From the NCBI GenBank assembly GCA_032358255.1, contig JAULBX010027783.1, positions 1-34,255 of the forward strand: a stretch of DNA of 34,255 nucleotides, written 5' to 3'. The translations under genes were made by a program, and so were the position numbers. How positions within the stretch are numbered: the stretch's first letter is position 1; each line of letters opens with the position of its first letter. Shown here in pieces: positions 2,415 to 26,589 of the stretch. The stretch comes from Heterotrichella gracilis. Its lineage: Eukaryota > Sar > Xanthophyceae > Tribonematales > Xanthonemataceae. Under the pieces are notes generated by a model, which saw nothing but the letters and a program-made list of their open reading frames with translations, searched no databases and was not told the DNA's origin.

Positions 2415-5400
2415 ATGCACGCACTGGGTACCAGACAAGGTGCGTAGAATGACACATGCTGAGGAGCCGCCGTGCAATTCAAGCGCTGTGGATTCACAGG
2501 TCCTTGCATGATGCGGTGCTTCCAGCTGGCTGCTGTTCACCCCCAGCCATCTTGTCCCCCTGCAGGCAGCCCTTCCCCCAGTCCTGTGCAGTGCAAGAAG
2601 GGCCGCAAGCCTGGCAAGGGTGGGCAGGGCATTGCCACCAATGGCAGCATGGCTCTGGCAGTGGATGACATTGACGCACTGGACCTGGCGCCAGTGGGGC
2701 GGGGGTACATGCCTCGCCAGGTGGAGCAGGACGCAGACCAGGAGCTGGTGCGCTGCATGATGGCTGCATGACAAGGGGCGGCCGGGATATGGCCTTTTTT
2801 CTGCACGACAGCCAGGCCTGTGTGCGCCTGTGCCCACCCCCTGCCACCCCCTTGCATGTGCAGGGCCGCATCATGGACGCCGTTGTGAAGGTGTACTGCG
2901 TGCACTGCGAGCCCAACCACAGCCTGCCCTGGCAGCGCAAGCGCCAGATGGCCTCCACCAGCAGCGGCTTCATTATCACGGGCCGCAATGGGGAGAGGTG
3001 GCTGCTCACTAATGCGCACAGCGTGGACTACTACTCACAGGTGCGGGCATGGGATGGAGGGCGGTTGCGGCATGCGCATGCTGCACCACTTGAGCCCCAT
3101 TCCCCCTCCCCTGACCATGGCCCGTGCTCCTCCCCCTTGTCACACTGCCTCTTGTCACACTGCGCCGGCCTCCACACGCCAACCCGCAGGTGAAGGTGAA
3201 GCGGCGCGGGGACGACCAGAAGTTCCTTGCGCGTGTGCTTGCCATCGGCACCGAGTGCGACATTGCCCTTCTGTCTGTGGATGATGACGCGTTTTGGGAG
3301 GGGGTCACTCCGCTGGAGTTTGGGGCGTTGCCGCGGCTGCAGGATGCGGTAGCGGTGGTGGGCTACCCCATCGGCGGGGACACGGTGCGCGCTGGCAGGG
3401 GAGGAGAGCACTCGCTGGCTACATATGCAGACTGTATCGCATAGACATGGTGCCGTGTGCACTGCCCTGTGCTGGCCCCCACTCACCCGCGCTTCTCCCT
3501 CCCGCATGCAGATCTCTGTGACCAGCGGCGTGGTGTCGCGCATTGAGGTGACGGCGTATGTGCACGGCAGCACAGAGTTGCTGGGGGTGCAGATAGATGC
3601 CGCAATCAACAGTGGGAACAGTGGTGGGCCAGTGTTCAATGACATCGGCCAGTGCGTGGGCATTGCATTCCAGTCAATGGCTGGAAGCGATGCAGAAAAC
3701 ATAGGGTGAGATGGTAATGTGCGCATTTTTGTTTGTCACTGGCGTGGCCATGCAATGCGCTTCCTCTTCGTTTATTTCTTATTATTTCATTTTTATTCTT
3801 TTCAGTTGTTATTATTAAAGTTTTGTTTTTTTGCTAACTCCTCCCACTTCCAACCCTCGTGCCTGCAGCTACGTCATCCCCACGCCCGTCATTGACCACT
3901 TCCTCACCGACTTCATGCGCCACGGGCGGTTCACGGGCTTTCCATCCTTGGGCATCAGCTGGCAGAAGATGGAGGCGCAGGCGCTCAGGTGAGGGAGGGT
4001 AGAGGAGGTGTGGAGGGGGAGGCATGGTGCAGCTTGTGGTTCACGCCTGTTGTGATGTTGCATGGGCAGTAGGCGCCAAAGTGTATGCGACTGCAAAATC
4101 CCTATCTCCAATTCCCCCACAGGACGTACTACAAGCTACCCACTGGTCGCAAGGGTGTGCTGGTACGCAAGCTGAGCAAGGTGGCTGACGTGGCGCGGGT
4201 GCTGCAGCCTGATGACATCATCATGACATTTGACGGAGTGCAGATCGCATGTGATGGCACTGTGCCCTTCAGAACAGGGGAGCGCATCTCATTCAGTACG
4301 TATGGAATTGCCATCTTGCTCAGTATGTGACGGAACTGTTGGCGCACCTTTTTAGCTGCTGCCAGGCAATGTGATGAGTGGCACTGTGCCTGCACTGTGC
4401 CACATGTGGTTTCCGCGGAATAGGGCATGTGTTGCTTGCGGTGTTGACCTACCCAACATGTACTGCATATCAAGCTGGTATCCCACTTTGCAGGCTACCT
4501 CCCATCTCAAAAGTTTTCTGGTGAAAGTGCTGTGCTGGTCATTCTGCGTGACGGCCAGGAGATGACTGTGGAGGTCAAGTGAGTGGCGAGCAGGGATGAG
4601 CATGTACAGTACACGGGCATGTACAATACACAACCTGCTGCATGCACTTTTATCTGTGACAGCAAACCAGCTGCTGCCTATTGCAGTCTCCTGCCGCCGG
4701 TGTCGCATGAGTGTCCACCCAGGATGCCCCTCCCCCTTTCCTTAGGTTGAGCACCCCCTACGGCCTGGTGCCCTCGCACCTGCGCGGCACCGACCCCTCC
4801 TACCTCATTGTGGCTGGTGTGGTGTTCTCCCCCGCCACTGAGCCCTACCTGGACTCTGAGTACGGCCACGACTACGCGCATGATGCACCCGTCAAGCTGC
4901 TGGACAGGCTGCTGTATGGAGAGAAGAAGTACAGCGAGGAGCAGGTGGGACGGAAGAGAGGGGGAAGGGGGTGTGTGGCACAGCCATACAATACACTGTT
5001 TGCACTGAGGGCTGCTGAGGACTTGCCTGTCCGTGCCTCGCTGCCTGACCGCCCTTTCATGTGTGTTGCAGGTGGTGCTTGTGTCCCAGGTGCTTGCATG
5101 CGACGCCACTCTAGGCTACGAGGAGATCTACAACACACAGCTGTACAAGTTCAACGGTGTGGATGTGCGCAACCTGCGGCACCTGGCCCAGCTGCTGGCC
5201 GCTAACCAAGAGCCCTACTTGCGCTTTGACATCGACTATGGCGAAGTGGTGGTGCTGGAGGCGGACAAGGTGGCGGACGCCACACGCGAGACACTGGTGC
5301 TGCATTCCATACCCGCGCCCTCCTCGCGCGACCTACTAGACTTGGTGCAGGGTGGGGAGGCACAGGGGATTGAAAGTGTGCAGGAGGGGGAGGTTGAGGG

Positions 5401-5437: not shown

Positions 5438-6102
5438 TAGTAGTTTTGTTTTAGTGGGGGATACAGGGATTGTGCACTGCGCATCTATTGGTGTTGTGGT
5501 GAACGAGCTGTAGCACAACCGCAGTCCCCCTACCCCCCCCCCGGGATCCTGGTTGGCGCTAGGTGCACTAGAGGATGGAATGCACTCCACACCAGGCTGC
5601 TCCTGCTAATGATACCATCAAGAGCCTTGCAGCATATTGATGTGCTGGATTATTCCACGTCTTCTCTCGCAAGTGGTAAACCATGTGGTAGAGCTTGCCA
5701 GTGGCAATGGTTTTCTTTCTGCCTATATCCTATGGGGTGCATTGCGCCAGAGCCCAGTCTGGATAATCAGTAACTGTGACACGCTACAGGCAACCATGCC
5801 AACGTCATGTGCTAGCAGCTGTCAGTGACTGTTGCATTCAATTTTCGGCATGCATGTGCAATGACCATGATGGCCTCGCATTGCGCATACTTCTCCAACG
5901 GAATTTAAATTGTCTATCCATTTGGCAGCAACTCGGTTCGAATACTTGTAGTACACTGTAGAGTGACTCAGCAGGCTACACTTGTGGTACACTCAGCAGG
6001 CTACAAACAAACAAACAAACGAAAGGCGTTCCAAGCCGTCATCGGCTTATTGCCCTGTGCAGGCTACACTATTAATTCAGTGAAATTCATACTGTAATTG
6101 GA
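5438..6102. other. DEG9 3' flank and intergenic DNA
   Basis: No gene seen. It holds the DEG9 3' untranslated region, a run of ten C bases near 5533-5542, a near-duplicate CTCAGCAGGCTACA at about 5968-6004 and a short (CAAA)n tract at about 6005-6020. Composition becomes AT-richer towards the retroelement-like ORF. Confidence 0.5.
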
Positions 6103-6777
6103 ATGCATTTATCATTACAGATGCTGAAGGCCACCCCCCCCCGCTACACAACCCTGCCCACATGGTTAATTCCTCCCACCATGGCTGCTTTCTATACTAA
6201 ACCTGACATTGTTTTTGTCACTCCCATAGGCAATCTTTCATCAGACCCCACCCATGTCGCCCGCGGCCGCCGCAGCTCCCATACAGTCCACCTCATCGAG
6301 GTCAAATGCCCTCATGACCTCGCCATTTATGACCGCTTCACCACGGCGGCAGCACAACATGTCAGACTTCAAGACGCCCTCCAGCAGCACCATTGGACAA
6401 CACATATCCACCCGATCATCATTGGATCCACAGGCATTATTGCCACGGGGACCCTAAATAGTCTCATTTCCTTGGGTCTCCCCACATCCACAGCCCTATC
6501 ACTTCTAAAACGTTTACAAGTTATCGCCATCACCCGCACACATGCTCTCTATACCACTGGCCGCCGCCTAACACGTAGCCCGCACGGGGCACCACCCTCG
6601 CCAGATACTGACAGCCCGCAGTGGGCACAGCCGCACCTTGATACCCCCAGCCCGCAGTGGGCACTGCTTCACCTAGTTTTGACAATCCCCACCCAGCCCC
6701 TTTTCTCCACCGCTCTACCCCTAGTGCTCACCCATCCCCAGTCCTTCCCCCATTTTTTTCTAGTGCTCCTACCATAG
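6103..6777 (+). mobile_element. Retroelement remnant with PD-(D/E)XK (RLE-like) nuclease domain
   Basis: A single uninterrupted 224-residue frame, unlike the intron-dense neighbours. Residues about 30-36 read KPDIVFV, and after a spacer HLIEVKCPHD, the P-D ... E-x-K signature of restriction-like nucleases. Then comes an AAAQHVRL helix and an HPIIIGSTG strand, the order I associate with the C-terminal restriction-like endonuclease of some non-LTR retrotransposons. The last 75 residues are proline-rich, and a repeated AGCCCGCAGTGGGCAC occurs near 6618 and 6648. No reverse transcriptase was seen upstream and the frame opens only at about 6076, so the copy looks 5'-truncated, as is usual for dead non-LTR copies. 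An ATG occurs at 6103 (and at 6121). It could instead be a host gene of the same fold. Confidence 0.5.
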
Positions 6778-7292
6778 TCCTTTTGCCGCCCACGCCTGCC
6801 CATATACGCCCTGTTTTCGCCACCCCACGGGGTTCTTCTGTATTCCCTCTCAGACCCTCCACTAACCCCCCCCATGCCACCACTCCCTCCACCACCTCTT
6901 TTTTACCCCCAAGGGACGGGTTCCCTGACTGACTTGACTTGGGGGCTATGCGTAGTTGCTATGCCGCCTTATTTACGCCTTAGGCGTCTTTTTTCTTTTC
7001 TTTCCTTTTCTTAATTGGATTCAATTTGTTGCATCTTTCAACGGTTGCAAGGTAATCTTGTGTTTGTCCAACCGTCAACAATCCCTGTTAGTGTTAACGA
7101 TTCACCGTGATCATCAGTGTAATCACAATTGTAGATGTCATATACATTTTAGTCCGACTGCAATCACATGATACAAAGCATACGGCATGCCTCAGAGATT
7201 TTCTTTTCTAAAGGGCGCAGCGCTGTCATCCGGGCGCAATGCTGTTATTCAATGACTTCAAATGAAGTCTTGAAGTGAGCCATGTACATAGT

Positions 7293-8248: not shown

Positions 8249-11200
8249 TCACTGCTTGAGGTGCAGGATATACTCGGGGTACGCCTGTGCATGGTCGTAC
8301 ACCGCGTAGATGTCGCCGCTGTTGGCGGAGTGGGCGCCAGGGGTGGGGCGATTACCAGCTGCAACCACAAACATGCAAATCATAAATTCCAACACAATTC
8401 CGTGGTAATTTCGATTCCATAATAAACTCCAAACCCAGGGGAAATCTTGTCAAACTGGTACTACGGTATATTATGCGGGGAGATGGAATAAAGCATTCAG
8501 ATATAGTTTTTTCATTTACTGACCCGTCAGTTGATTTACGTAGTTTATTCCCCAAACAAATACGCTGGTCCTGACAAAACCTCATGAAACAAATACTCTC
8601 AGACAACTGTACACTAATCAATAGTATTATGATTGATGCCAGCGCACCTGCACTGTTGCCGAGGACCACCCTGCACAGGAGCATTGCATGCGTCCCCTTG
8701 CACACAATGTTTCTGCGCACCCCTGCTGTCGCGGGTGGTCCTGGAACTGCCCCGCCTCCCATCGCCAAGGACCCTGGGAGGGAGGGCATGACCCCGCCTC
8801 CCATTGCCAAGAGCCCTGGGAGGGATGGTATGGCCCCAAATCCCATTGCCAATGGCGCCGGGACGGGAGGTCTGCAGTACAATCACCTGGTCAAACTTAC
8901 TGCAGGCAAAGAGTGAGCTGCAGTCGCACCCAGTGCGACAGCGAAAGCATTCCTCAAGGGCAGGGGGACAATGCGGGCAGTCATTGAGTGATGAAGCATG
9001 CTCAAGTTGATCAACCGTTGACCTTAAAAATATACCTGGAAAAAAACAATTGATTGACTACCAGCTTGACTTCAACAAACATCATAGGTGGCAGACCAAT
9101 GACCACACAGTCCCAGAAACAAGTGATTGACTACTCAGTACAGTCCAAAAGCAGGTGTGCCTCACGCACTGCCATGTAGCAAAATAAAACACTTGCTGAT
9201 CTGCCCGAATCGTTTGTGGCAGGTGCTTCCATATTGGCACTTGCATGGTGTACACGTTACCCGTAAGCAAGTCCAACACGCACCCTTTCTGCACGTAGCT
9301 CCCACTGTAGCTGGAATGGAGAGCAAAGTAAGCCCCTGTAAGACACAAAAGGCCATATCTTGTCACAACAGTCAATGCAGTATAGGAGTACATGTGTGAA
9401 CACGTTTGGTGTATTTAACATGATCCAATGCTGAGGTTGACCACCAGAAGCGACTGGCATTTCATACATTTGCATGCCAATAGGGTCCCCGGTGCCACCA
9501 CTCAATGCAAAAAGGACCACCTGCAATAAAAAATGGACAGCATCCATGTGTTGTATGCAGCATCAATAGGAAACATCTATCTTAGTAGTGCAATAAATAA
9601 GCAAGGGATGGCTACTATGATTGTAGCGCTGTAATAGCATGTAGGTACATGTATTTGCATTGCAATGGCTAGGCAACACCTACAGCAGAAAGTAAAAGCC
9701 ACAAAAGGTTTCCACACGCTCCAGTGCTGCTTAGTGTAAATACGCTAGTATGGAAAGAGTGTTGCGTATTACAAAGCTCGTCAATTTTAAAAGGCGTACC
9801 TTGCCCCAATGTTCCGTAAGGGTTGCTGACTCTCAGGTCAAACCCATCCTGCACAATTGCCTGGATGTTGCTCCATCCTGTACCGTGAAACAGCCACTGC
9901 TTATTGGCAGCCTCCTCCCCACGACACTCGCGCACAATTTTGGTGTACGCCAGGTGGTGGGCAAGCCACAGCTCAGGGTTCTGCACGCGCTGCGGCAACA
10001 CACAAGCGCGATGGAGATGTCATCTCATCTCTTGAGTTGTCAACAAGTGCAAGAAGTAGCCAGCATGCCATATTGCAACACCTGCTTCACATGCTGTGCA
10101 CCTGCCCTGTGTGTAGCAATGCCGCGCTCGTAAACGAAAACGGACCCTGGAGATCATGTACCTTGGATCATTAATGCCAAAGTTGTCTTTTTATTTACCA
10201 CGTGTTAAATCTGTTAAAACCTAGATTATATGTATTTAAGCAGCCCCAACACTGGTGCATGGCTGATTCTGCGCCATAGCGCTCACCTGGACAGCAACCA
10301 CTGCCTGCGTGCACCTGGTGCCTCGCTTGAGGGCCTGCACCACTCGCTACACCTCCTCCTTCAGCTGCTTGCTCTTTGCAACTTGCGCCCTTTTGGCAAC
10401 ACTACAACAAATGGAAAACGAATTTTGATGCATTAGATTGTTTGGATCTATGATTGTTGTTCAACCATCACCAACATCCAGCAGACATAGAATGCAAACA
10501 ATTGCAATACATTATTAAATCATCTATGTGTAAAATGACTGGGCTGGAGTTTGCAAGCTCAGAGTCTACCGAGTCACATGAGGGTCTGGGGCCTGGTGGG
10601 CATTCAGACGATGCCAGGGTTGGGCAGCAACGTGCGTGCATGTGCCAAACAACAGCAACTGGTGAAAATAAGCTTGTGTATCAACACACTGCATAGGCAC
10701 CGCCCCATGCCAGACTTGATAAAGAATCCATGCTGCATAAATTTAAATAACGACGGTGAACAGCATCATACCTGGAGGCAGCGCTTGCTTCTCGCTTTCC
10801 TGGTGGCAAAGCCAGAGGCACCCCCACTTCCAATGCCTGCACAGCCCACAGCAGTGCCGCGTCTGGGTCCCCGCCAGCCACTCCCAGTGCCACCACGGCA
10901 TCACGCACGCTAAGCCCGTTGGCCAGCAGCGGCTCCATTTGCGCTGTGCAACCCAGATGTGGTCAATTAACACTTAGCCACCCAACCAGTACACGCAACA
11001 AAGGTTTACAAACTCTATATGTATACAAACTGGTCCTGTGCATTTGAGAGCTTTACCAGCATGTCACGTTGCTGGTCAGTGTCACATTACAACACCTCCT
11101 TGGAAGAGTATTTCCACCCATTGTACCTAAGGTTTGCACGTTGACATTCATAATGAAAAGAGCAGTTGATCTGATTTGCTTGCAGATATGCCACACCACG

Positions 11201-14200
11201 CCTACCATCAGTGTAGGGAGCTGTTCCACCTCCGTCTCCAGACATTTGTGCATCTGCAGCCTGGCTGCCAACACCCCCCCGCAGCAATCTTGAAGGCCCA
11301 GCACGGCCGCCGACAGTGTTGCCGCCTTCCGGTGTCCATGGCAAGTCCACAACACGCACCCCCTCGCCTGGAGCCCTGAACAGATGCACATCATAGAATA
11401 AATGATACCGGAGAAACACAGCTGGGAAAAGAAGCACAAAATGTGCAATGGGAATACCAGTCACTTGTAATGACAATGCCAATTTGAAAATGAGGTGATC
11501 ATGCATGTTTTACATTGCAATGAAGATTTCTGTGTCACATGTTGTGCCACTCAGCTTTGCAGCGCTGCGCAGAAAGGGCCCTGCCGGCAGCCGACATCAA
11601 TACATGCATGCATGGTGTCAGCTTGTCGCTTGTAATGTATCTGATATTTTATTCAACCAAATTGCTGTATTTGATTCAACCTCATTGCTTGCAAGACTTG
11701 CAAGGATATGCATTGTCGTAGCCATCAGCTGCCAGCAGGACGCCTGTGGCAAGCAAATGACATGTGAGCGGGAATCATATGTGACCTCACAGCATGCATG
11801 TGAAGTACCAGGGGCCAATGCATGGTGCTTGCACTTACATAGGCTCCCAGTGGTCGGGGAGGCGGGCGTCCGGCACCACAGCCGCATGAGCAGCCGCCAG
11901 CGCGCCCTGCACAGAGAGAGGTCATGCCAGCGGATAACATATGTCCAGGATATCCAGGTAAAGTAAAGTACGACGGTGACACCGGGAGCATAATATTATA
12001 GGGAAAACTGTTTGAATCATGGTCAGCCCACACCGCATGAGTGTTATGGCTTTTGGTTCAAGCAAAACAGCGGCTGTTGGTACTATCCCCTCCCTTGCAA
12101 ACCCTCACAAGGTTGTTTCTATCGCCCTTGTCAAGCCTCCCACCAGCCATTGTACAAGCGCTGCTGCACTGCTCACCCACCTGCTGCACCTGCTGCATCA
12201 GCTGCTGGTTGAGGCGCTGCATGTGTGCCACCTGGAGCTGCAGGCGTGCAGCGTCACTGGGGCCGCCTGGCACTGCACCGCCGCCTTTGCCACCCCCCTC
12301 AACCACATCCTCAGCATCGCTGCCTGTGAAGTCAACTGCGCCTGCCCCTCCACCGCCTGTGAGGTCCACCACATCCATGCCGTGTGCATGTCCTGCACAT
12401 CCACTGCCAACACATCAAGACCGTGGCAGAGCAGTTGAGGGCTGGCACCAACACCACTGAAGCAGGCTTGTGTGTAGACATCGCATTGGGTGCACAGCGG
12501 CTTGGGTGTGGACGGGCCCTCTTGCACTGTACTTGGCTGGTCATAGCTTATGACTTGTCACCACATGTCCAGGCATCACATGTCCGCGGGCAAGGCACTG
12601 CACTCATCGTGAATATATTACATTGGAGATTGACCTGCCACAGATAAATCACAAAAGACCTCTTGAGTGCCACTTGCCTTGCTGGTGACAGGTACGCTTG
12701 CGGGTGGCAGGTCCGCTTGCTGCCACTGCCCTGCTGCTGCTCATACCACCACCACCTCCTTGGGACGCGGCTCTGCGCTTGCCCTTGTGCAGCACCTGTG
12801 CAGGGCGTCCGCCTGTGGCAGCTGGCCCAACTAGTGGAGCGGGCCTGCTGCTGTGCACGACCCTCTTGCCCTTGCCGTGTGTAGGTGCATCGCCAGCACC
12901 TGCGTGGCCCCATCCATGGCTCCTGTGGTGCGCTTCCATTCTTCTGTAAGACTGACGCGCCTCGCTCTCGGAATAGGCCTGCAGGAACAAGTGGTCACAC
13001 ACAGTGTTATTATCGACCTGATGAGGGCGCAGGGTGCCACAGGCTTTGGGGCGTTGGGGGCCACTGCTGGGGGCGAGTGCCACAGGGAATTATTTCTTTT
13101 AAATTAACATTATATGTATACTGATTATTGTTGTATAAAAGTAATCCAGAACAATTTGACAGGACTTATAGGATGTAATTGTTATAATGTAAACAGTACC
13201 ATGCAGTTTGTAATGCATAGATTGAAAGTATTTTGAAAATACATTACTTTAAATAAATATTGCTAGCTAATCTAGATGAGCTGCGCCTCAATATGAGCCC
13301 CTGTGGGCTGCACCCTTGGCTCTGCCATGCAAACTCGTGCTCTGCACCCACCCCCCACCTGCATTGGTGCGGTAAAATTCACCCTGAGCGGCCCCGACAC
13401 CCCCCCTGGCCCAGTCGCCGTCTGCACCAGCACTGCCTCGCACTGCACCATGTTGGACAGGACCACCTGGACCAACACACACCGCCGCTGTCAGCATGAA
13501 CATAGCAGTGAGGTCACCTAGGTCACCACAAAGGAATAAAGGTGTGGAACCTTGAACACGAGCCAGGGGTGTCCCAGGTGTCCACAGCGCCTTCTGGTTA
13601 ACGTTGGAAACAGCTGTATGTAGTGTGGGAAACAGTTGACGCACAGGTTCTGACTGAACCGTTCAGTACTCTTGGCAGAGGCTGCATGGCAATGAGTGAC
13701 CCACCTGCAGCACTGACTCAAAGCTGTAGTCTGGCTTCCAGCAGTTGTCGCTGCCGCTCATGCTCAGCACCTCAATGCACACGGCACCACCTGCGGTCAC
13801 ATGGCCCGTGTACATCTGGCAGCGAGGTGTGACCACGCACAGCAGGAAGGGCTGAGTGGGGTAGTTTTCGGGGAACAGCGCCTCCATGAGGAGGTATACC
13901 TGAGCAGGTATCTACGTAGCCATGGCCGTGCAAGGTCTCAAGGCGGGCCAGGTCGGCGTTGAGCTGGGCGCCACCAGGCAGGTCAGAATCAAAGTGGTGC
14001 ACCTTGAACTGCCAGCGGTGCACGTTGTCTCCAACTGGTTTCAGCTCGAACACCTGAAGCAGGGACCATGGTTTCAGCTCGAAAACGTGAAGCAGGGCCA
14101 GCCAGGCGTGCACAACTCGCCTCTGTGTATTCCAACAAACCGCCATCGACTACTGTCTTAAGCACGGAGTACCTGGCGCTACACCCAACAAGCACCAGGC

Positions 14201-14419
14201 GATTATGTTACAGGCAGGTCGACCATTTGCCTGCAACAGCCACTTCAACGTACAAGTCAAAGCTTGCTGATTGCCAATATAGGTTGCGATACTGCTGCCC
14301 AGACCAACCTGTGCCAAGTTCCCCTTGGAAATCTCCTTTTTCATGTACTTCAACTCGGACATAACGCGCTTGGTCCCTTGCATAGCTCGCCACGGCGCCG
14401 ACTTTTGGTCACCCACCAT
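8249..14419 (-). CDS. Fusion of UBE2Q-like ubiquitin E2, UBA-like domain and PARP-type ADP-ribosyltransferase
   Basis: Exons on the minus strand: 14419-14309, 14053-13916, 13899-13705, 13466-13359, 12978-12900, 12392-12181, 11906-11839, 11375-11206, 10943-10772, 10401-10353, 9989-9800, 9335-9284, 8871-8648, 8358-8249; about 625 residues. Residues about 15-160 are a UBE2Q-like E2 fold: LFPENYPTQPF, then GHVTAGGAVCIEVL with the candidate catalytic Cys124. A VVDLT motif resembling a SUMO-interaction motif is followed by a Gln-rich helix. A UBA-like segment reads MEPLLANGLS ... GGDPDAALLWA. The C-terminus is a PARP fold: RVQNPELW, LFHGT (His469), GAYFA (Tyr500), MLLCRVVLGN, QAYPEY. The third triad position is Ile606, as in mono-transferases. 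Exon 5 could extend to 12696 in the same phase, adding 68 basic residues that look like a nuclear signal. An upstream in-frame ATG exists at 14602. The 13915-13900 junction is anomalous (see findings). Confidence 0.8.
8727..8852 (-). repeat. Three 42-bp coding repeats inside the PARP domain
   Basis: Three consecutive 14-codon units at 8852-8811, 8810-8769 and 8768-8727 encode LAMGFGAIPSLPGL, LAMGGGVMPSLPGS and LAMGGGAVPGPPAT. They lie in frame between the SSYSGSY strand and MLLCRVVLGN, so they form a Gly/Met/Pro insertion in a loop of the catalytic fold. The third unit has diverged most. Confidence 0.8.
14038..14100 (-). repeat. Tandem duplication of a 3' splice site and exon start
   Basis: Two adjacent copies of about 32 bp read, on the minus strand, CCCTGCTTCA followed by TTCGAGCTGAAACCA. 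The copy used in the gene model has CAG at the intron end (AG at 14055-14054). The other copy has CAC at the same place, so its acceptor is dead and it is left in the intron. Both encode FELKP if read through. Confidence 0.75.
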
Positions 14420-15402: not shown

Positions 15403-15427
15403 GTCTCAGTCTCAGTCTCAGTCTCAG
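15403..15427. repeat. (GTCTCA)4 microsatellite
   Basis: Four perfect hexamer copies plus one base, in the TPLATE 3' flank. Confidence 0.9.
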
Positions 15428-15499
15428 GTACACTGACCATAGGATGTGTGTGCCACATAAGCGCACCCACTGCCGGACAAACGGCTGGTGTGCCGAGGC

Positions 15500-18400
15500 T
15501 CACGCCACGGTTGCCGCCTTGATGCGCTGCCACTCCCTGACACCCAGCCCCTCCCAGTGCAGCTGCGCCTGCGGCCCTGTTGCGGGTGCGGGTGCGGGGG
15601 TGCGGTGCGCATACAGGGTGGCCAGGCGCTGGCCCTCCTCAGGAAGGGGGCCGATGGGAGGGGCGCCAGCAGGGGGGGCGTCAGCACTGCCAATGGAGTT
15701 GCCTGGGGCGTATGGGGTTGCCGTGAGAATAAAGCAGTCAACATAAACGGTGCTATTAAGTTGCCCTGAACGCTAATAAACCATTTCCCTCTGATGCCGC
15801 CAGCAAATGCACGCATGGTAGTTGATACAGACCCGTGCCCATCCATGCGTGGCGCTGTGTCCCACCCGGCCATACCTGACACGCCCGCTAGCCAGGCCTC
15901 CCCGTCCCGCTCCACGCTTGCGATGACATCAGCGCATGAGGTGCGCACTGACAGGCGCACAGCAGTGGTGCCGCTGCCCCCCCCATTACCCTGCTCAAGG
16001 TGGCCAGTCACCACCAGGGCAACGATCTCCCCCGTCAGAGTCTGCGCAAGGTATCCCCCTTGGAACCCGCCAGCAGAGGGCACGCCCTGCACACCGCCAT
16101 GCACTCATCAGCACTAGCCACCACAGCACGCGCCTGGTACTCAGCTTACTACCCACTAGGAATTCATGATACGTAATACGTAATACGCAGTACGCGATTC
16201 GTAATTACGTCACAATACATATTTTGTGTTTTAACATACGTTGAAATTACGAGGTGTGGGGTAATTTAGTATTTTATTTTGATATATTTACATTACTTCA
16301 ATGGTAATATGCATTTCACGTATCGTGCGTATTCCAACAAATGGCTATAAAATGTGATACGTATAACCCTGTAAAGACATATTATTGTGAACCCCTAGCC
16401 ACCCCACCCCCCACCTGCAAAAACACCTCCTGGAATGGTGACGCGCGCAGGCCCCGCAGCAGCGCCAGCCCCCCTGTGGGACCTGGTGCAGCCGCCTGCC
16501 CTGACAGCAGCGCATGGAAGGGCAGCGCAGGCAGGTCGTGGTAGAACTGGGAGGGGGTCACGGCCTGAGGGAAGGGGGGGGGGGGGGCAGCGGGGTGTCA
16601 GGAGAGACGAGGGGAGCACAGCAGGTCTCCAGGTGACAGGAGGGGATGGGCCAGGCCAGCTGTCGGCCGTGTGTTACCTTTGTAGGTGCTGTGAGCAGCG
16701 CTGTGACTGGTAGGACGTATGGCGCACACCGCAGGCTGAGCTGCTCCCCCTGGCTGTCAAAGCCTATGAGGCTGAGGGTCACAAGCACCTGCACAAAGCC
16801 AGGGGGGGCACAGGTGAGTGGTGCAGGAGGTCAGTGGTGCAGATGGTGGCAGATTGGCCCTCTACCATCCAATTGCGCATGGCAAAAGTGAAGAAGAACA
16901 TGGGGGGAGTATAGGGAGGAAAACGTGAAAGCAGCGAAGCAGTCATTTTGCTGCAAGGGACAGCGCAATACAACATGGCATGTCACAGTGGAAATGTTTG
17001 CTCCATGCCAACAGCGCCACACCCCACACCACCGGCCAGCAGCCACTATGAGTTTGCACATGCAGCAAGGGCCATGCCACTTCCCCCCGCCCCCTGCCCG
17101 CCCCACCTGCACCGCCACCCTGTCAAATGCCTCCAGCTTCACCGCCGTCTGCAGCACCACGCTCCCACCCGCAGGGATGGCTGGCAGGCTGTGCGAGGTG
17201 CTGTCCAGCGGCCCAGTGTGGCAGGTGGCGCCAATGTCCACGCACACCATGCTCATGCCCAGGCTCAGCATGTTGTGCAGGGTCACACTCACAACCAGGC
17301 GACCGTCCTGCGCACACAGGGGAAACCCGAGTGGGCACAGTTGTGCAGGCAGGCATGGGGACAGGCCACATGCATGGGTGCACAGCCTGGGCGGCAGGCG
17401 TGGCCAGGGGTGGGGTTGTTCGCACCTGCAGCGTGTGTGTGGCAGTGACTGTGATAGGGTCTGATGCGCCAGTCAGCAGCCGCCCTTCGCCCAGCGCCAC
17501 CCCCTGCAGCAGCGCCGCCGCCTGCACCCCGGCTGTGTCCTGCATCCCCCCCTGCGCCGCCATGTCCCCATACACCCCCCGCACAGCAGTGGCCACCTGG
17601 CCCCGCAGCGCCTGGTGACGCAGAATGCGCCTGGAGCAGTGCAGCGCGGGTGCGGCGGGCAGCAGCAGCGGGTAGCCCTGGCGGCAGCTCAGCGAGGAGG
17701 GCAGCGCCATTACTGGCGCCTTGGCCCCCACCTGCGGGGCCTCCTCCTCCTCCTCTGGTTCCACGTCGCTGTCATCCGACATGCCCGCAGCCGCATCAGA
17801 GGCCTTGCTCACCTTGGTGGCCAGCTGGGAGGAGGAGGTAGGGCGGGGCGTTAGGCATGCAGTGTGCGCAAGCAACCAGAGAAGCAGGCAGGATGGCATG
17901 CAGCACTAGGTGGCACACTATGCGGTTGTGTGGTTGTCAACAATTTGCCAATGCCCAGCTCTCACCGCTGTGAGTGTTGTGTACAGCCTGGACATGCGCT
18001 CCCTTGAGGCGGGGTCCAGGGCCTGTGGCGCGTGGTCATGCAGGCGACCAGACAGGCGCACAGCCACGTCAGCCACCCCAGGCAGCGTGGGGTCAGCCTG
18101 CGCCCATGCCGCCAGCAGCGCCACCAGTCGCTCATACGTCGCTATGCCCACCTCCACCCCCTCCAGCTCTGCTTCAACCTCCTCGGCGCTCCTGGATGAA
18201 GGCGATGTGGCCGACGCCTGCAAGTGGGGGCAAGGGCTGAGCAAAGAAAACAGATCTCTGAAACTCCATTTTTCTTACTTTTTAGCCTTCCATGTGACAT
18301 ATATTTTGAAAAAGTTCAAGGAAAACTGCATAGCACCCAAATGAACACCCTTAGTTATGGAGTGACTGAAACATTATTATATTACATTCAACAGTATCAT

Positions 18401-24286: not shown

Positions 24287-26589
24287 ATGACCCGAGCTGC
24301 CCTGCCCTGTGCACGCTCCTGTGTGCGCCACCTGTCCCCGCTGCTGCTGCGCCCCTTCAGCAGTGGCCACCTGCACGTGCAGCTTGAGCCACTTGACGGG
24401 GACAACGAGGGCATATTCAAGCTCACACTCACCAGGTCACCTGCTGCACAGCCTGTGCGCAAATAGCATGAACACTGTGCGCATGCTGCACCACTGTTTG
24501 CCATCCTTCTCTACTGTGTCCTGGCACAACACAGCCCCACCACCTGCCGCTTGCCGTGCTATGATAACACCCCCTCCTCCGTCAGGCCCGAGTCCCGCAA
24601 TGCCATTGGCCGCCAGATGCTGCGCGAGCTGGTTGAGGCGCTGGACCAGCTGCGCCAGGAGCGGAGCACCAGGTGTCTCATTGTGGGGTCAGCAGTCGGA
24701 GGCGTGTTCTGTGCAGGGGCGGACCTCAAGGTAGGGATGTGGTGAGGGTAGGTATTTCACAATACTACGCATCTTCCAACAAATACGTAATAAGACGTAT
24801 TTTCAGGAGGATTTCAGCATGTCACGTGGCATTTTAAACTCCTCCTGTCACAAGACTATTATACTTGAAAATATGTTAGAACATTTCAATATTAAATTCG
24901 GTGAAAATATTAAAAGTAAACCTCCCAACTATTTTTTGGCGGTGAAACAAGAAGGTCAAAGGAGTTATGGTGTAGGCTTATGGTTGGGTATGGCTTTTGT
25001 CTTTTGCTTTTATGACATCACGCATTTTTCACGCATTTTTGAATTATGTACATAAAAAACGTCCGTTGCGTGTTTACGTCTTACGTATCACGTGTCATGA
25101 GTCCCTAGGCAAGGGTGGGGGTAGGTCTTGAACAGGACTAGAGGCTGCAGGCCGGGGGGCGCGCCTGCGCTCCATTGCTCATTGGTGAGCGGTGTATTCT
25201 ACCCTACTTCAGCTGATCTGCCCCCTCCCCTTGCTTCTGCTCAGGAGCGCGCAACCATGACCGAGTGGGAGGCAGCAGGCTTTGTGAGGCAGCTGCGCAC
25301 AGCATTCACCGCACTGGAGGTATGGAGGTACCCTGGCGCATAGAACTCTGACCTGGCCATGCAGGCACCTCGCATGTCACCCACCCTCGAGTTCTCATGC
25401 CCACCCTCGAGTTCTCACCCACACCGACATCATGGTAGTCACATGTCACCCACGCCCTGGTTCTTACCCGCCCACATTGCCCGAAATCCCGTGCAGTGCC
25501 TACCCATGCCCACCGTGGCGATGGTTGAAGGCCTGGCGCTGGGTGGCGGCGCTGAGCTGGCGCTGGCATGTGACCTCAGGGTGGCGGGGGCACAGGCAGA
25601 GTTTGCATTCCCAGAGACAAAGCTGGGCATCATCCCAGGGTGAGTACCGCGCAACCCCATCATGCGCCACATGTACGCCATCACAGCAGGTGAATGGCCT
25701 ATCCACCCAGGTTTGTTTTGCTGCAGAGCGGGCGGCACCCAGCGCCTGCCACGTGTGATTGGCCGCACCCGCGCCAAGGAGCTCATATACACAGGCAGGA
25801 GGGTGGGGGCACAGGAGGCGGCAACAATAGGTAAGTGGGTGGGGAGATGGGGGGGGCTCGCCACTGCAATCTCATGCTACCTGCAGTACCTATCACTGTG
25901 ACTCGCTTTACCCTCTGTATTTTCCAAAGCTGGTTGTGAACTGGCTCCCTGTGCGCTCTTTCCTGCTCCTTCATTCCACCCCCCCTCCCACCCAGGCCTG
26001 GTTGACCATGCTGTGGCGGGTGGCAGCGCCGACGAGCGTGCGCTGCGCCTGGGGAGGGACATCGCCAGCGGTGGGCCCCTCGCGCTGCGCATGGCCAAGG
26101 AGGCCATTGATGGGGGCATGGAGGTGTCGCTGGGGATGGGGCTCAAGCTGGAGGGGTTGTGTTACGCACAGGTGAGGGTAGCGGCCTAGGGGGGTGCAGG
26201 GGAACTGCGCAAAGATGCGCGCATGACTGCAAGTGGTAGCAGTCTAACGCACAGGATAATTGCATCTGACATTATAACCAGCAACGATAACTCTTTTTTA
26301 GAAATGCCGCTCCAGCCTCAATGGCACATTCATGTCACTCTGCTGTGGCCATTGCATTGCGGGCAATATGGGCAGTGCATCCTACTTGACTGAGCACCAG
26401 GCTGAAGCCCATATGCTGCATGCTGCTGACAGGGCCATGAGGGCACTAGGTGGAGTAAGCAGGTGGCGCCAATATCCGGTGCTACCTAGGTTGACCGCTT
26501 CCTTCCTGCAGGTCCTTCGCAGTGAAGACCGGCTGGAGGGGCTGCGCGCATTCATGGAAAAGCGACAGCCAAAGTTCACTGGGAACTAA
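24287..26589 (+). CDS. Mitochondrial enoyl-CoA / methylglutaconyl-CoA hydratase (crotonase family)
   Basis: A crotonase-fold hydratase like human AUH and plant 'enoyl-CoA hydratase 2, mitochondrial', which act in leucine breakdown or fatty acid beta-oxidation. Exons: 24287-24435, 24586-24730, 25245-25319, 25497-25639, 25727-25830, 25996-26171, 26512-26589; phases agree and give 289 residues (plant relatives about 300). The N-terminus, with Arg and no acidic residue up to RPFSSGH, is a typical mitochondrial presequence. The oxyanion-hole segments are VFCAGADLK and ALGGG. The two catalytic glutamates are Glu143 in [11 protein letters not shown] and Glu163 in [11 protein letters not shown], almost the same numbers as Glu144/Glu164 of rat crotonase. 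[13 protein letters not shown] follows. The exact acyl-CoA substrate cannot be read from the sequence. Intron 2 (24731-25244) carries an AT-rich island. The gene is convergent with the RWP-RK gene. Confidence 0.93.
24755..25105. repeat. AT-rich island in hydratase intron 2
   Basis: It begins with CTACGCATCTTCCAACAAAT and ACGTAATAAGACGTA and ends with CTTACGTATCACGTGTCATG. The ends are loosely inverted copies around an ACGTA core. The composition contrasts strongly with the GC-rich exons, and it shares a TTCCAACAAAT segment with the TPLATE intron island at 16160-16380 in the same orientation. Confidence 0.4.

What the first reader, a model, noticed from the sequence alone, without database searches (positions are those of the whole stretch)
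8249..14419. Ubiquitin E2, SUMO-binding-like motif, UBA-like domain and PARP transferase on one polypeptide
The exon chain is continuous in phase from a UBE2Q-like E2 fold with its active-site-type cysteine to a complete PARP catalytic domain at the C-terminus. The middle adds a VVDLT motif and a UBA-like segment. E2-type folds joined to PARP domains are known, as I recall, from fungal proteins where the E2 part is on the C-terminal side; here the order is E2 first, with a UBA in between. The layout suggests coupled ubiquitin transfer and ADP-ribosylation, perhaps ADP-ribosylation of ubiquitin or of ubiquitinated or SUMOylated substrates. That function is inference.
Basis: partly seen in the sequence, partly recalled or inferred. 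Interest (0 to 1): 0.85.

Follow-up and report, generated by a model that had tools for sequence, protein, structure and literature searches.

The report
Algal E2–UBA–PARP gene, window copy disrupted
A green-alga gene joins a ubiquitin-loading enzyme, a ubiquitin-binding domain and an ADP-ribose-adding enzyme in one protein; the copy in this window looks broken, but an intact sister copy lies elsewhere in the same genome, so the fusion is real and could couple the two protein tags.

Summary
The domains are real and in the stated order on the minus strand: UBE2Q-type E2, linker with VDLT motifs, UBA-like segment, PARP. The window chain is not continuous, however. Exons 2 and 3 join with all shared residues kept only if a 16-nt GT..AG gap is left out, and an in-frame TAG lies between UBA and PARP. 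The decisive evidence is a second copy on contig C201 of the same assembly: same exon order, 12 of 12 paired introns of equal phase, a complete 720-aa frame. It reads straight through where the window copy has a 22-bp insertion, and has a sense codon at the TAG. Both copies kept their frame through an old duplication (dS about 0.78; dN/dS 0.23 in E2, 0.33 in PARP). The architecture is thus a selected gene family, and the window copy a recently disrupted duplicate or an assembly error. The PARP domain is PARP12/tankyrase-like with an H-Y-I triad (predicted mono-ADP-ribosyltransferase). UBCc plus PARP in Chlamydomonas was reported in 2014, so this is a variant of a known kind. A UBE2Q-like, possibly hydroxyl-directed E2 tethered to a mono-ART suggests ubiquitin placed on or near ADP-ribose; that is untested.

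The parts
14309..14419 (-). exon 1, start codon and first E2 helix
   Evidence: ATG; 34-aa match to C201 exon 1; donor GTTGGT
13916..14053 (-). exon 2, E2 domain
   Evidence: about 77% DNA identity to C201 in a match spanning exons 2 and 3; alignment
13897..13918 (-). 22-bp insertion relative to C201, not a multiple of three (placement ambiguous by three bases); holds the 16-nt GT..AG stretch 13915-13900
   Evidence: alignment with C201; read without leaving out the 16 nt, the frame ends at a TGA at 13774-13772 (ORF 13772-14149)
13705..13899 (-). exon 3, E2 core with catalytic-position cysteine (GGAVCIEVL)
   Evidence: UBE2Q1 alignment
13359..13466 (-). exon 4, E2
   Evidence: matches C201
12678..12978 (-). 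exon 5, E2 C-terminal helix with the His409- and Trp414-equivalent residues of UBE2Q1, then disordered-looking linker; 3' end uncertain (GC donor used here; DNA similarity to C201 ends at 12746)
12181..12392 (-). exon 6, VVDLT and AVDFT motifs (SIM-like); C201 has VVDLT and two AVDLT
   Evidence: SIM label recalled, not tested
11839..11906 (-). exon 7, RLPDHWEP linker
11206..11375 (-). exon 8, VRVVDLPW linker
10772..10943 (-). exon 9, UBA-like segment
   Evidence: C201 counterpart reaches the Pfam UBA cut-off as a segment; window segment alone has no match
10287..10401 (-). exon 10, PARP N-flank, holds the in-frame TAG (codon 510)
9800..9989 (-). exon 11, PARP: RVQNPELW..WLFHGT (triad His)
9284..9335 (-). 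exon 12, PARP: GAYFALHSSYSGSY (triad Tyr)
8648..8871 (-). exon 13, Pro/Gly-rich insertion and PARP strand AMLLCRVVLG
   Evidence: counterpart in C201
8249..8358 (-). exon 14, PARP end IYAVYDHAQAYPEYIL (Ile at the third triad position), stop TGA

Best explanation
This is one of two copies of a green-algal gene that encodes, in one polypeptide, a non-canonical UBE2Q-type ubiquitin E2, a linker with tandem VDLT (SUMO-interaction-like) motifs, a UBA, and a PARP12/tankyrase-like ADP-ribosyltransferase with an H-Y-I triad. Shown here by sequence: the domains, their order, the shared exon plan and long purifying selection. Inferred: the intact C201 protein is a mono-ADP-ribosyltransferase held next to an E2 that takes ubiquitin from E1 and, like UBE2Q1, may pass it to hydroxyl groups; the UBA and VDLT motifs dock it on ubiquitylated or SUMOylated targets, so that one target receives ADP-ribose and ubiquitin, possibly with ubiquitin ester-linked to the ADP-ribose. 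The window copy has a frameshifting 22-bp insertion in the E2 and an in-frame stop before the PARP; as assembled it is probably a recently inactivated duplicate.
For: Second copy C201:50063-55776: same order on one strand, 12 of 12 paired introns of equal phase, 720 aa, no internal stop. With the 16-nt stretch left out, 13 of 13 paired exon lengths are equal (2) or differ by multiples of three (11); exons were chosen partly by homology, and equal phases already imply most of this. dN/dS 0.36 overall, E2 0.23, linker 0.53, UBA 0.40, PARP 0.33 over 647 aligned codons, the one with the stop skipped. Best solved-structure matches: UBE2Q1 for the E2 of both copies; PARP12 and tankyrase-2 then PARP12 for the PARP. 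UBA above the Pfam cut-off as a C201 segment. Residues aligned to UBE2Q1 His409 and Trp414 are kept (window; C201: by its alignment to the window copy); UBE2Q1 and UBE2Q2 discharge ubiquitin on Ser, Thr, glycerol and glucose (PMC10971424). Lesions. TAG is not a sense codon here: 0 of 53 HSP70 matches hold an internal TAG.
Against: No transcript or protein evidence. The residue aligned to UBE2Q1 Tyr343 is His in both copies; in UBE2Q1 only Phe was tolerated there of the changes tested, so hydroxyl activity may be lost or altered. Both copies have a Met just before VVDLT in exon 6 and a TGTAA (a green-algal poly(A) signal by recall) at or soon after the exon 5 read-through stop, so two adjacent genes cannot be ruled out. 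The lesions rest on one assembly and could be errors. Full-length C201 scores UBA below the curated cut-off. 1 of 30 E2-family matches holds an internal TAG.
Confidence: 0.72

Rival explanations
1. Two adjacent genes on the same strand: a short UBE2QL1-like E2 gene ending after exon 5, and a SIM-UBA-PARP gene starting at the Met before VVDLT.
For: Both copies have that Met, an open read-through of exon 5 into a stop, and a TGTAA close by.
Against: The gap from exon 5 to exon 6 is only 221 nt in C201 and 285 nt in the window, little room for a terminator, promoter and leader. Exons 5 and 6 meet in phase 1 in both copies, with a GTGAGT donor in C201. No blocks outside the gene are shared between the window and C201:42001-64000 apart from one interspersed repeat. 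UBCc plus PARP in one protein is already reported for C. reinhardtii (PMC4245714).
Confidence: 0.1
2. The window copy is functional and the two lesions are assembly or read errors.
For: Only one stop and one frameshift in about 2.1 kb after an old duplication; dN/dS well below 1. Neutral drift at d = 0.39 would give about 18 stops, and 0 of 500 simulations had one or none.
Against: Two separate lesions in one copy and none in the other; recent loss explains the same numbers (at d = 0.02 a mean of 1.5 stops).
Confidence: 0.22
3. The window copy escapes the frameshift by splicing, either with a 16-nt micro-intron or by skipping exon 2 with a normal-length intron from exon 1 to exon 3, and makes an E2-like protein that ends at the TAG, without PARP.
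For: The 16-nt stretch begins GT, ends AG and its omission restores frame. Exon 2 is 138 nt with phase 0 on both sides, so skipping it would also keep the frame.
Against: The other window introns are 238-464 nt, C201 introns 141-446 nt, and C201 has no intron there. Skipping exon 2 would remove 46 residues of the E2 fold that C201 keeps. With 155 frame-keeping GT/GC..AG removals in these two exons, finding one is no evidence.
Confidence: 0.08
4. It is a member of the known fungal/plant PARP6/8 (clade 6) UBCc-PARP group.
For: UBCc and PARP in one green-algal protein, no Glu in the triad (PMC4245714, PMC2964712).
Against: The PARP domain matches PARP12, tankyrases, PARP14/15/10; no PARP16 chain among the 47 matches or the 60 shown of 102. 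The E2 is N-terminal, unlike fungal clade 6A.
Confidence: 0.15

Closest known systems
Chlamydomonas reinhardtii and Physcomitrella patens PARP with UBCc domain (Perina 2014, PMC4245714)
   Same: UBCc and PARP domains in one green-lineage protein
   Different: there assigned to PARP6/8; domain order not given in the text read; no UBA or SIM mentioned for these two; here the PARP is PARP12/tankyrase-like.
Fungal clade 6A PARP-UBCc proteins (Citarelli 2010, PMC2964712)
   Same: E2 fold with catalytic Cys plus a PARP lacking the triad Glu
   Different: E2 is C-terminal, FPE (RWD-like) N-terminus, clade 6 PARP
UBE2Q1/UBE2Q2/UBE2QL1 (PMC10971424)
   Same: E2 domain including the C-terminal helix with His409 and Trp414 equivalents; no HPN
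   Different: no N-terminal RWD found; Tyr343 equivalent is His; fused to UBA and PARP
Human PARP10/PARP12 (clade 3 mono-ARTs)
   Same: H-Y-I triad (recalled for these) and a YPEYI-type end (PARP12); PARP10 also carries ubiquitin-binding UIMs (PMC4245714)
   Different: no E2; UBA instead of UIM; Pro/Gly-rich insertion inside the PARP domain
Deltex E3 / MARUbylation (PMC12000418)
   Same: would join ubiquitin to mono-ADP-ribose
   Different: Deltex is an E3; here an E2 and an ART share one chain; product not shown

Membership tests
UBE2Q-type E2 | E2 fold best matched by UBE2Q1/Q2-type structures | tested here: met
   2qgx 6.8e-15, 1zuo 4.6e-13; C201 1.2e-9 and 1.5e-9
UBE2Q-type E2 | catalytic Cys351 equivalent, no HPN motif | tested here: met
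   GGAVCIEVL / GGSVCIEVL; TGHVTAGG in the place of HPN
UBE2Q-type E2 | Tyr343-His409-Trp414 triad | tested here: not met
   His and Trp kept in both copies, Tyr position is His in both (for the window copy; C201; triad from PMC10971424)
UBE2Q1/Q2 full-length | N-terminal RWD domain | tested here: not met
   the C201 ATG lies 9 codons after an in-frame stop and the protein has no RWD match up to E = 10; further upstream exons not excluded
PARP superfamily | PF00644 catalytic domain with His and Tyr of the triad | tested here: met
   1.3e-19, 1.6e-17; FHGT, GAYFA/GIYFA
Poly-ADP-ribosylating PARP | third triad residue Glu | tested here: not met
   window Ile aligns with PARP12 Ile; C201 Ile with tankyrase-2 Glu
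PARP clade 6 (PARP6/8/16) with UBCc | PARP domain closest to PARP6/8/16 | tested here: inconclusive
   PARP12, tankyrases, PARP14/15/10 rank first; no PARP16 among 47 matches or the 60 shown of 102; no tree with algal sequences possible
PARP clade 6 (PARP6/8/16) with UBCc | PfamB_2311 / Cys-rich region before PARP | not tested
   model not at hand; no pattern search made
UBA domain | PF00627 above the curated cut-off | tested here: inconclusive
   C201 segment 23.5 bits (cut-off 22.4), whole C201 18.8; window segment no match
SUMO-interacting motif | hydrophobic core with acidic flank that binds SUMO | not testable with these tools
   VVDLTCDEE, AVDLTAKEE, AVDLTANED in C201; motif recalled

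The most novel reading that the evidence does not exclude
The intact gene encodes a self-contained writer of ubiquitin on mono-ADP-ribose: its PARP half attaches ADP-ribose to a SUMO- or ubiquitin-marked target, and its hydroxyl-directed UBE2Q-type E2 half passes ubiquitin directly onto that ADP-ribose, with no Deltex-type E3.
Probability: 0.15. Interest if true: 0.82.

Novelty: new variant of a known kind. Interest (0 to 1): 0.52.

Why it matters
If the intact protein works as its parts suggest, nature has fused the two enzymes whose joint product, ubiquitin ester-linked to mono-ADP-ribose, was reported for the first time in cells in 2025 (PMC12000418, abstract). A single-chain enzyme would make that chemistry directly testable in vitro and would put it in green algae. 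It also places a UBE2Q-type E2 in a green alga, whereas one survey passage (PMC11354881) treats UBE2Q domains as specific to Metazoa with lower scores in Fungi and Protista.

Tried and rejected
Recoded TAG: rejected. 0 of 53 HSP70 matches hold an internal TAG (3 of 53 hold another stop), 1 of 30 UQ_con matches holds a TAG, and C201 has a sense codon there.

Retrocopy: rejected. The window copy keeps introns that pair with 12 of 12 introns of C201; the exact border at exon 5/6 is uncertain.

Segmental duplication with neighbours: no shared blocks found. The whole window against C201:42001-64000 gave 9 DNA matches, 8 inside the gene and one (24891-25015) an interspersed repeat with 10 further matches in the assembly; the protein comparison gave matches only inside the gene.

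Viral origin: two scans of viral contigs found no relative. The genome-contig scan was not used.

Other ADP-ribose machinery in the assembly: the PARP family search found only one C201 exon and missed the window's own PARP, so it cannot show that other PARPs are absent; the protein search gave 10 matches, 4 in the window gene, 3 in C201 and 3 weak ones at E 0.077-0.67, one of which I looked at without result. Macrodomain exons on C13. No WGR match at E 0.001. Deltex DTC gave no match, but neither did the control genomes, so that is uninformative. Rfam: no match in the window.

Structure prediction was not run: the tool takes unchanged window translations and this is a spliced protein.

Literature: E2-PARP proteins were searched (20 of 35 papers listed; 10 of 13 listed); of what was listed, only Citarelli 2010 and Perina 2014 were seen to describe them. 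Perina's figure with the domain order is not held. The ADPr-Ub review PMC12687431 has none of the terms fusion, fused, UBE2Q, algae, fungal, plant. Searches gave the UBE2Q1 and MARUbylation papers. Passages of PMC10951314 on UBE2Q1 were read and not used.

First gene model: the exon borders near 9284 and 8722 and the exon 5 donor were wrong; the donor was revised and the other two. The searches used the shorter PARP model. Odds changed for that reason: the splicing-escape rival now covers exon 2 skipping and rises from 0.04 to 0.08, and the error rival falls from 0.25 to 0.22.
Full report
What was checked. The region 8249-14419 was read on the minus strand and an exon chain was built from splice sites, phases and protein similarity. 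Fourteen blocks, joined by AG acceptors and GT (one GC) donors, give 721 codons plus stop. The E2 part matches Pfam UQ_con (3.5e-8) and, best of the solved structures, UBE2Q1 (2qgx, 6.8e-15, residues 12-207) and 1zuo (a hypothetical protein in the listing, 4.6e-13, residues 12-159). The PARP part matches PF00644 (1.3e-19) and, best, PARP12 (2pqf, 2.1e-14), then tankyrase-2, PARP14, PARP15, tankyrase-1 and PARP10 (47 distinct sequences at 1e-3). So the domains are real and in the order stated.

What does not hold in the window. Two places break the chain. Exon 2 (14053-13916) and exon 3 (13899-13705) join with the residues on both sides kept only when 16 nt (13915-13900) are left out (or 4 nt). 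Read straight on, the frame ends at a TGA at 13774-13772, at the catalytic cysteine codon but in the wrong frame. In all, 155 GT/GC..AG removals keep these two exons open to their end; those of normal length delete E2 residues that C201 keeps, and skipping exon 2 altogether (138 nt, phase 0) would also keep the frame at the cost of 46 residues. Codon 510, in exon 10401-10287, is TAG. The other 12 introns are 238-464 nt long.

The second copy. Searches of the window's own assembly (68.5 Mb, 903 contigs) found one close relative, on contig C201: E2 exons at about 54.2-55.8 kb and PARP exons at about 50.1-51.8 kb on the same strand. Its 13 exons (L015) give 720 aa with no internal stop. Its 12 introns pair in order with window introns and have the same phases, 12 of 12. 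At the 16-nt gap C201 reads straight through, and the alignment shows a 22-bp insertion in the window copy. At the window TAG it has a sense codon. With the 16 nt left out, 13 of 13 paired exon lengths are equal or differ by multiples of three; since exons were chosen partly by homology and equal phases imply most of this, it is not a blind test.

Age and selection. Over 647 aligned codons, Nei-Gojobori dS is 0.78 and dN 0.28 (ratio 0.36). The ratio is 0.23 in the E2, 0.53 in the linker, 0.40 in the UBA-like part and 0.33 in the PARP part (the low-complexity stretches are poorly aligned and raise some of these). In a simple one-rate simulation started from the C201 coding sequence, drift for half of dS (0.39) gives about 18 stops and 0 of 500 runs had one or none; at d = 0.05 the mean is 3.4 and 15% of runs had one or none; at d = 0.02 the mean is 1.5. 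So both copies kept their frames for most of their history, and the window copy lost its frame recently, or the assembly is wrong at two places. TAG is not recoded: 0 of 53 HSP70 matches contain one, though 1 of 30 E2-family matches does.

The UBA and the VDLT motifs. As a 57-aa piece the C201 segment reaches PF00627 at 23.5 bits (cut-off 22.4, E 5e-5) and UBA_7 at 3.9e-5 (below its cut-off). In the whole protein it scores 18.8, below the cut-off, and the window segment gives nothing up to E = 10. The best solved-structure match is ubiquitin-specific protease 14 (1wiv) at only E 0.081, with UBA proteins and uracil phosphoribosyltransferases both among the 9 weak matches. C201 exon 6 reads VVDLTCDEE, AVDLTAKEE and AVDLTANED; the window has VVDLT and AVDFT. 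From memory this is the shape of tandem SUMO-interacting motifs; no binding was tested.

Active-site reading. Both E2 copies have a cysteine aligned with UBE2Q1 Cys351 and no HPN. UBE2Q1 and UBE2Q2 discharge ubiquitin on serine, threonine, glycerol and glucose, and UBE2Q1 needs Tyr343, His409 and Trp414 (PMC10971424; abstract, passages and section 10 read). In the alignment the window copy keeps His409 and Trp414, while the Tyr343 position is His. C201 has His at the Tyr343 position too and the His and Trp by its alignment to the window copy; its own UBE2Q1 alignment ends before the C-terminal helix. In the PARP half the triad Glu of tankyrase-2 is Ile in C201, and the window Ile aligns with Ile of PARP12. 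By established knowledge an H-Y-I PARP is a mono-ADP-ribosyltransferase.

One gene or two. The rival of two neighbouring genes has some support: a Met just before VVDLT in both copies, and a TGTAA at or soon after the read-through stop of exon 5 in both (window 12622; L015 6019). Against it are the short gap (221 nt in C201, 285 nt in the window), the matching phase 1 at exons 5 and 6 in both, the strong GTGAGT donor in C201, and the published UBCc-PARP of Chlamydomonas. Transcripts would settle it.

Known relatives. Citarelli 2010 (PMC2964712; passages and section 12 read) describes fungal clade 6A proteins with a UBCc in a C-terminal extension after the PARP, and green-algal clade 6B proteins without other known domains. 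Perina 2014 (PMC4245714; passages and the clade 6 section read) states that PARP6/8 homologues of Ascomycota, Basidiomycota, Physcomitrella patens and Chlamydomonas reinhardtii have a UBCc, and that those of Acanthamoeba castellanii and Trichomonas vaginalis have a UBA. The E2-PARP pairing in green algae is therefore known. What is not described in the text I read is the UBE2Q type, the N-terminal E2, the UBA and VDLT repeats in the same protein, and a PARP closer to PARP12 and tankyrase than to PARP16. A 2024 survey (PMC11354881, passages read) calls UBE2Q domains specific to Metazoa, with lower scores in Fungi and Protista.

Mechanism. The most likely working of the intact copy is a mono-ADP-ribosyltransferase with its own E2 on a flexible tether, docked on ubiquitin or SUMO. 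Steps supported by sequence: the domains, catalytic Cys, His and Tyr, loss of Glu, UBA likeness, selection. Steps inferred: ubiquitin loading, hydroxyl discharge, targeting, and any joint product. Ubiquitin esters on mono-ADP-ribose exist in cells (PMC12000418; outline and abstract read), which makes the joint product plausible, but the Tyr343 change speaks against a simple copy of UBE2Q1 chemistry. The window copy itself, as assembled, should make neither enzyme: the frameshift removes the E2 core unless splicing avoids it, and the TAG lies before the PARP, with no Met between the TAG and the PARP core (sequence).

Verdict. This is a new variant of a known kind.

Noticed in passing
G000 C201:50063-55776 (L015 2063-7776, minus strand): Intact paralogue of the finding, 720 aa, with three VDLT motifs and a Pro/Phe/Gly-rich repeat inside the PARP domain.
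   Followed up: yes
window 4711-5202 (+): Open frame with a PDZ_3 domain (Pfam 4.5e-12), the type found in DegP-like proteases by recall.
   Followed up: no
window 24891-25015: Interspersed repeat: 10 further matches (66-81% identity) on other contigs of the assembly.
   Followed up: partly
window 6001-7000: Kilobase with an extreme GC skew of -0.388; a 233-aa open frame there (6076-6774 +) has no Pfam match at E 0.01.
   Followed up: no
window 15427-17905 (-): What looks like a neighbouring multi-exon gene; its two long open frames tested (15427-16104, 17126-17905) have no Pfam match at E 0.01.
   Followed up: no
window 14083-14036 (-): TTCGAGCTGAAACCA occurs twice (14083-14069 and 14050-14036), on either side of the exon 2 acceptor: a short local duplication.
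   Followed up: no
G000 C13:63074-63957 (-): Macrodomain exons (PF01661, best 1.4e-12), a possible reader or eraser of ADP-ribose in the same genome; two of the three matches hold stops inside, perhaps introns.
   Followed up: no
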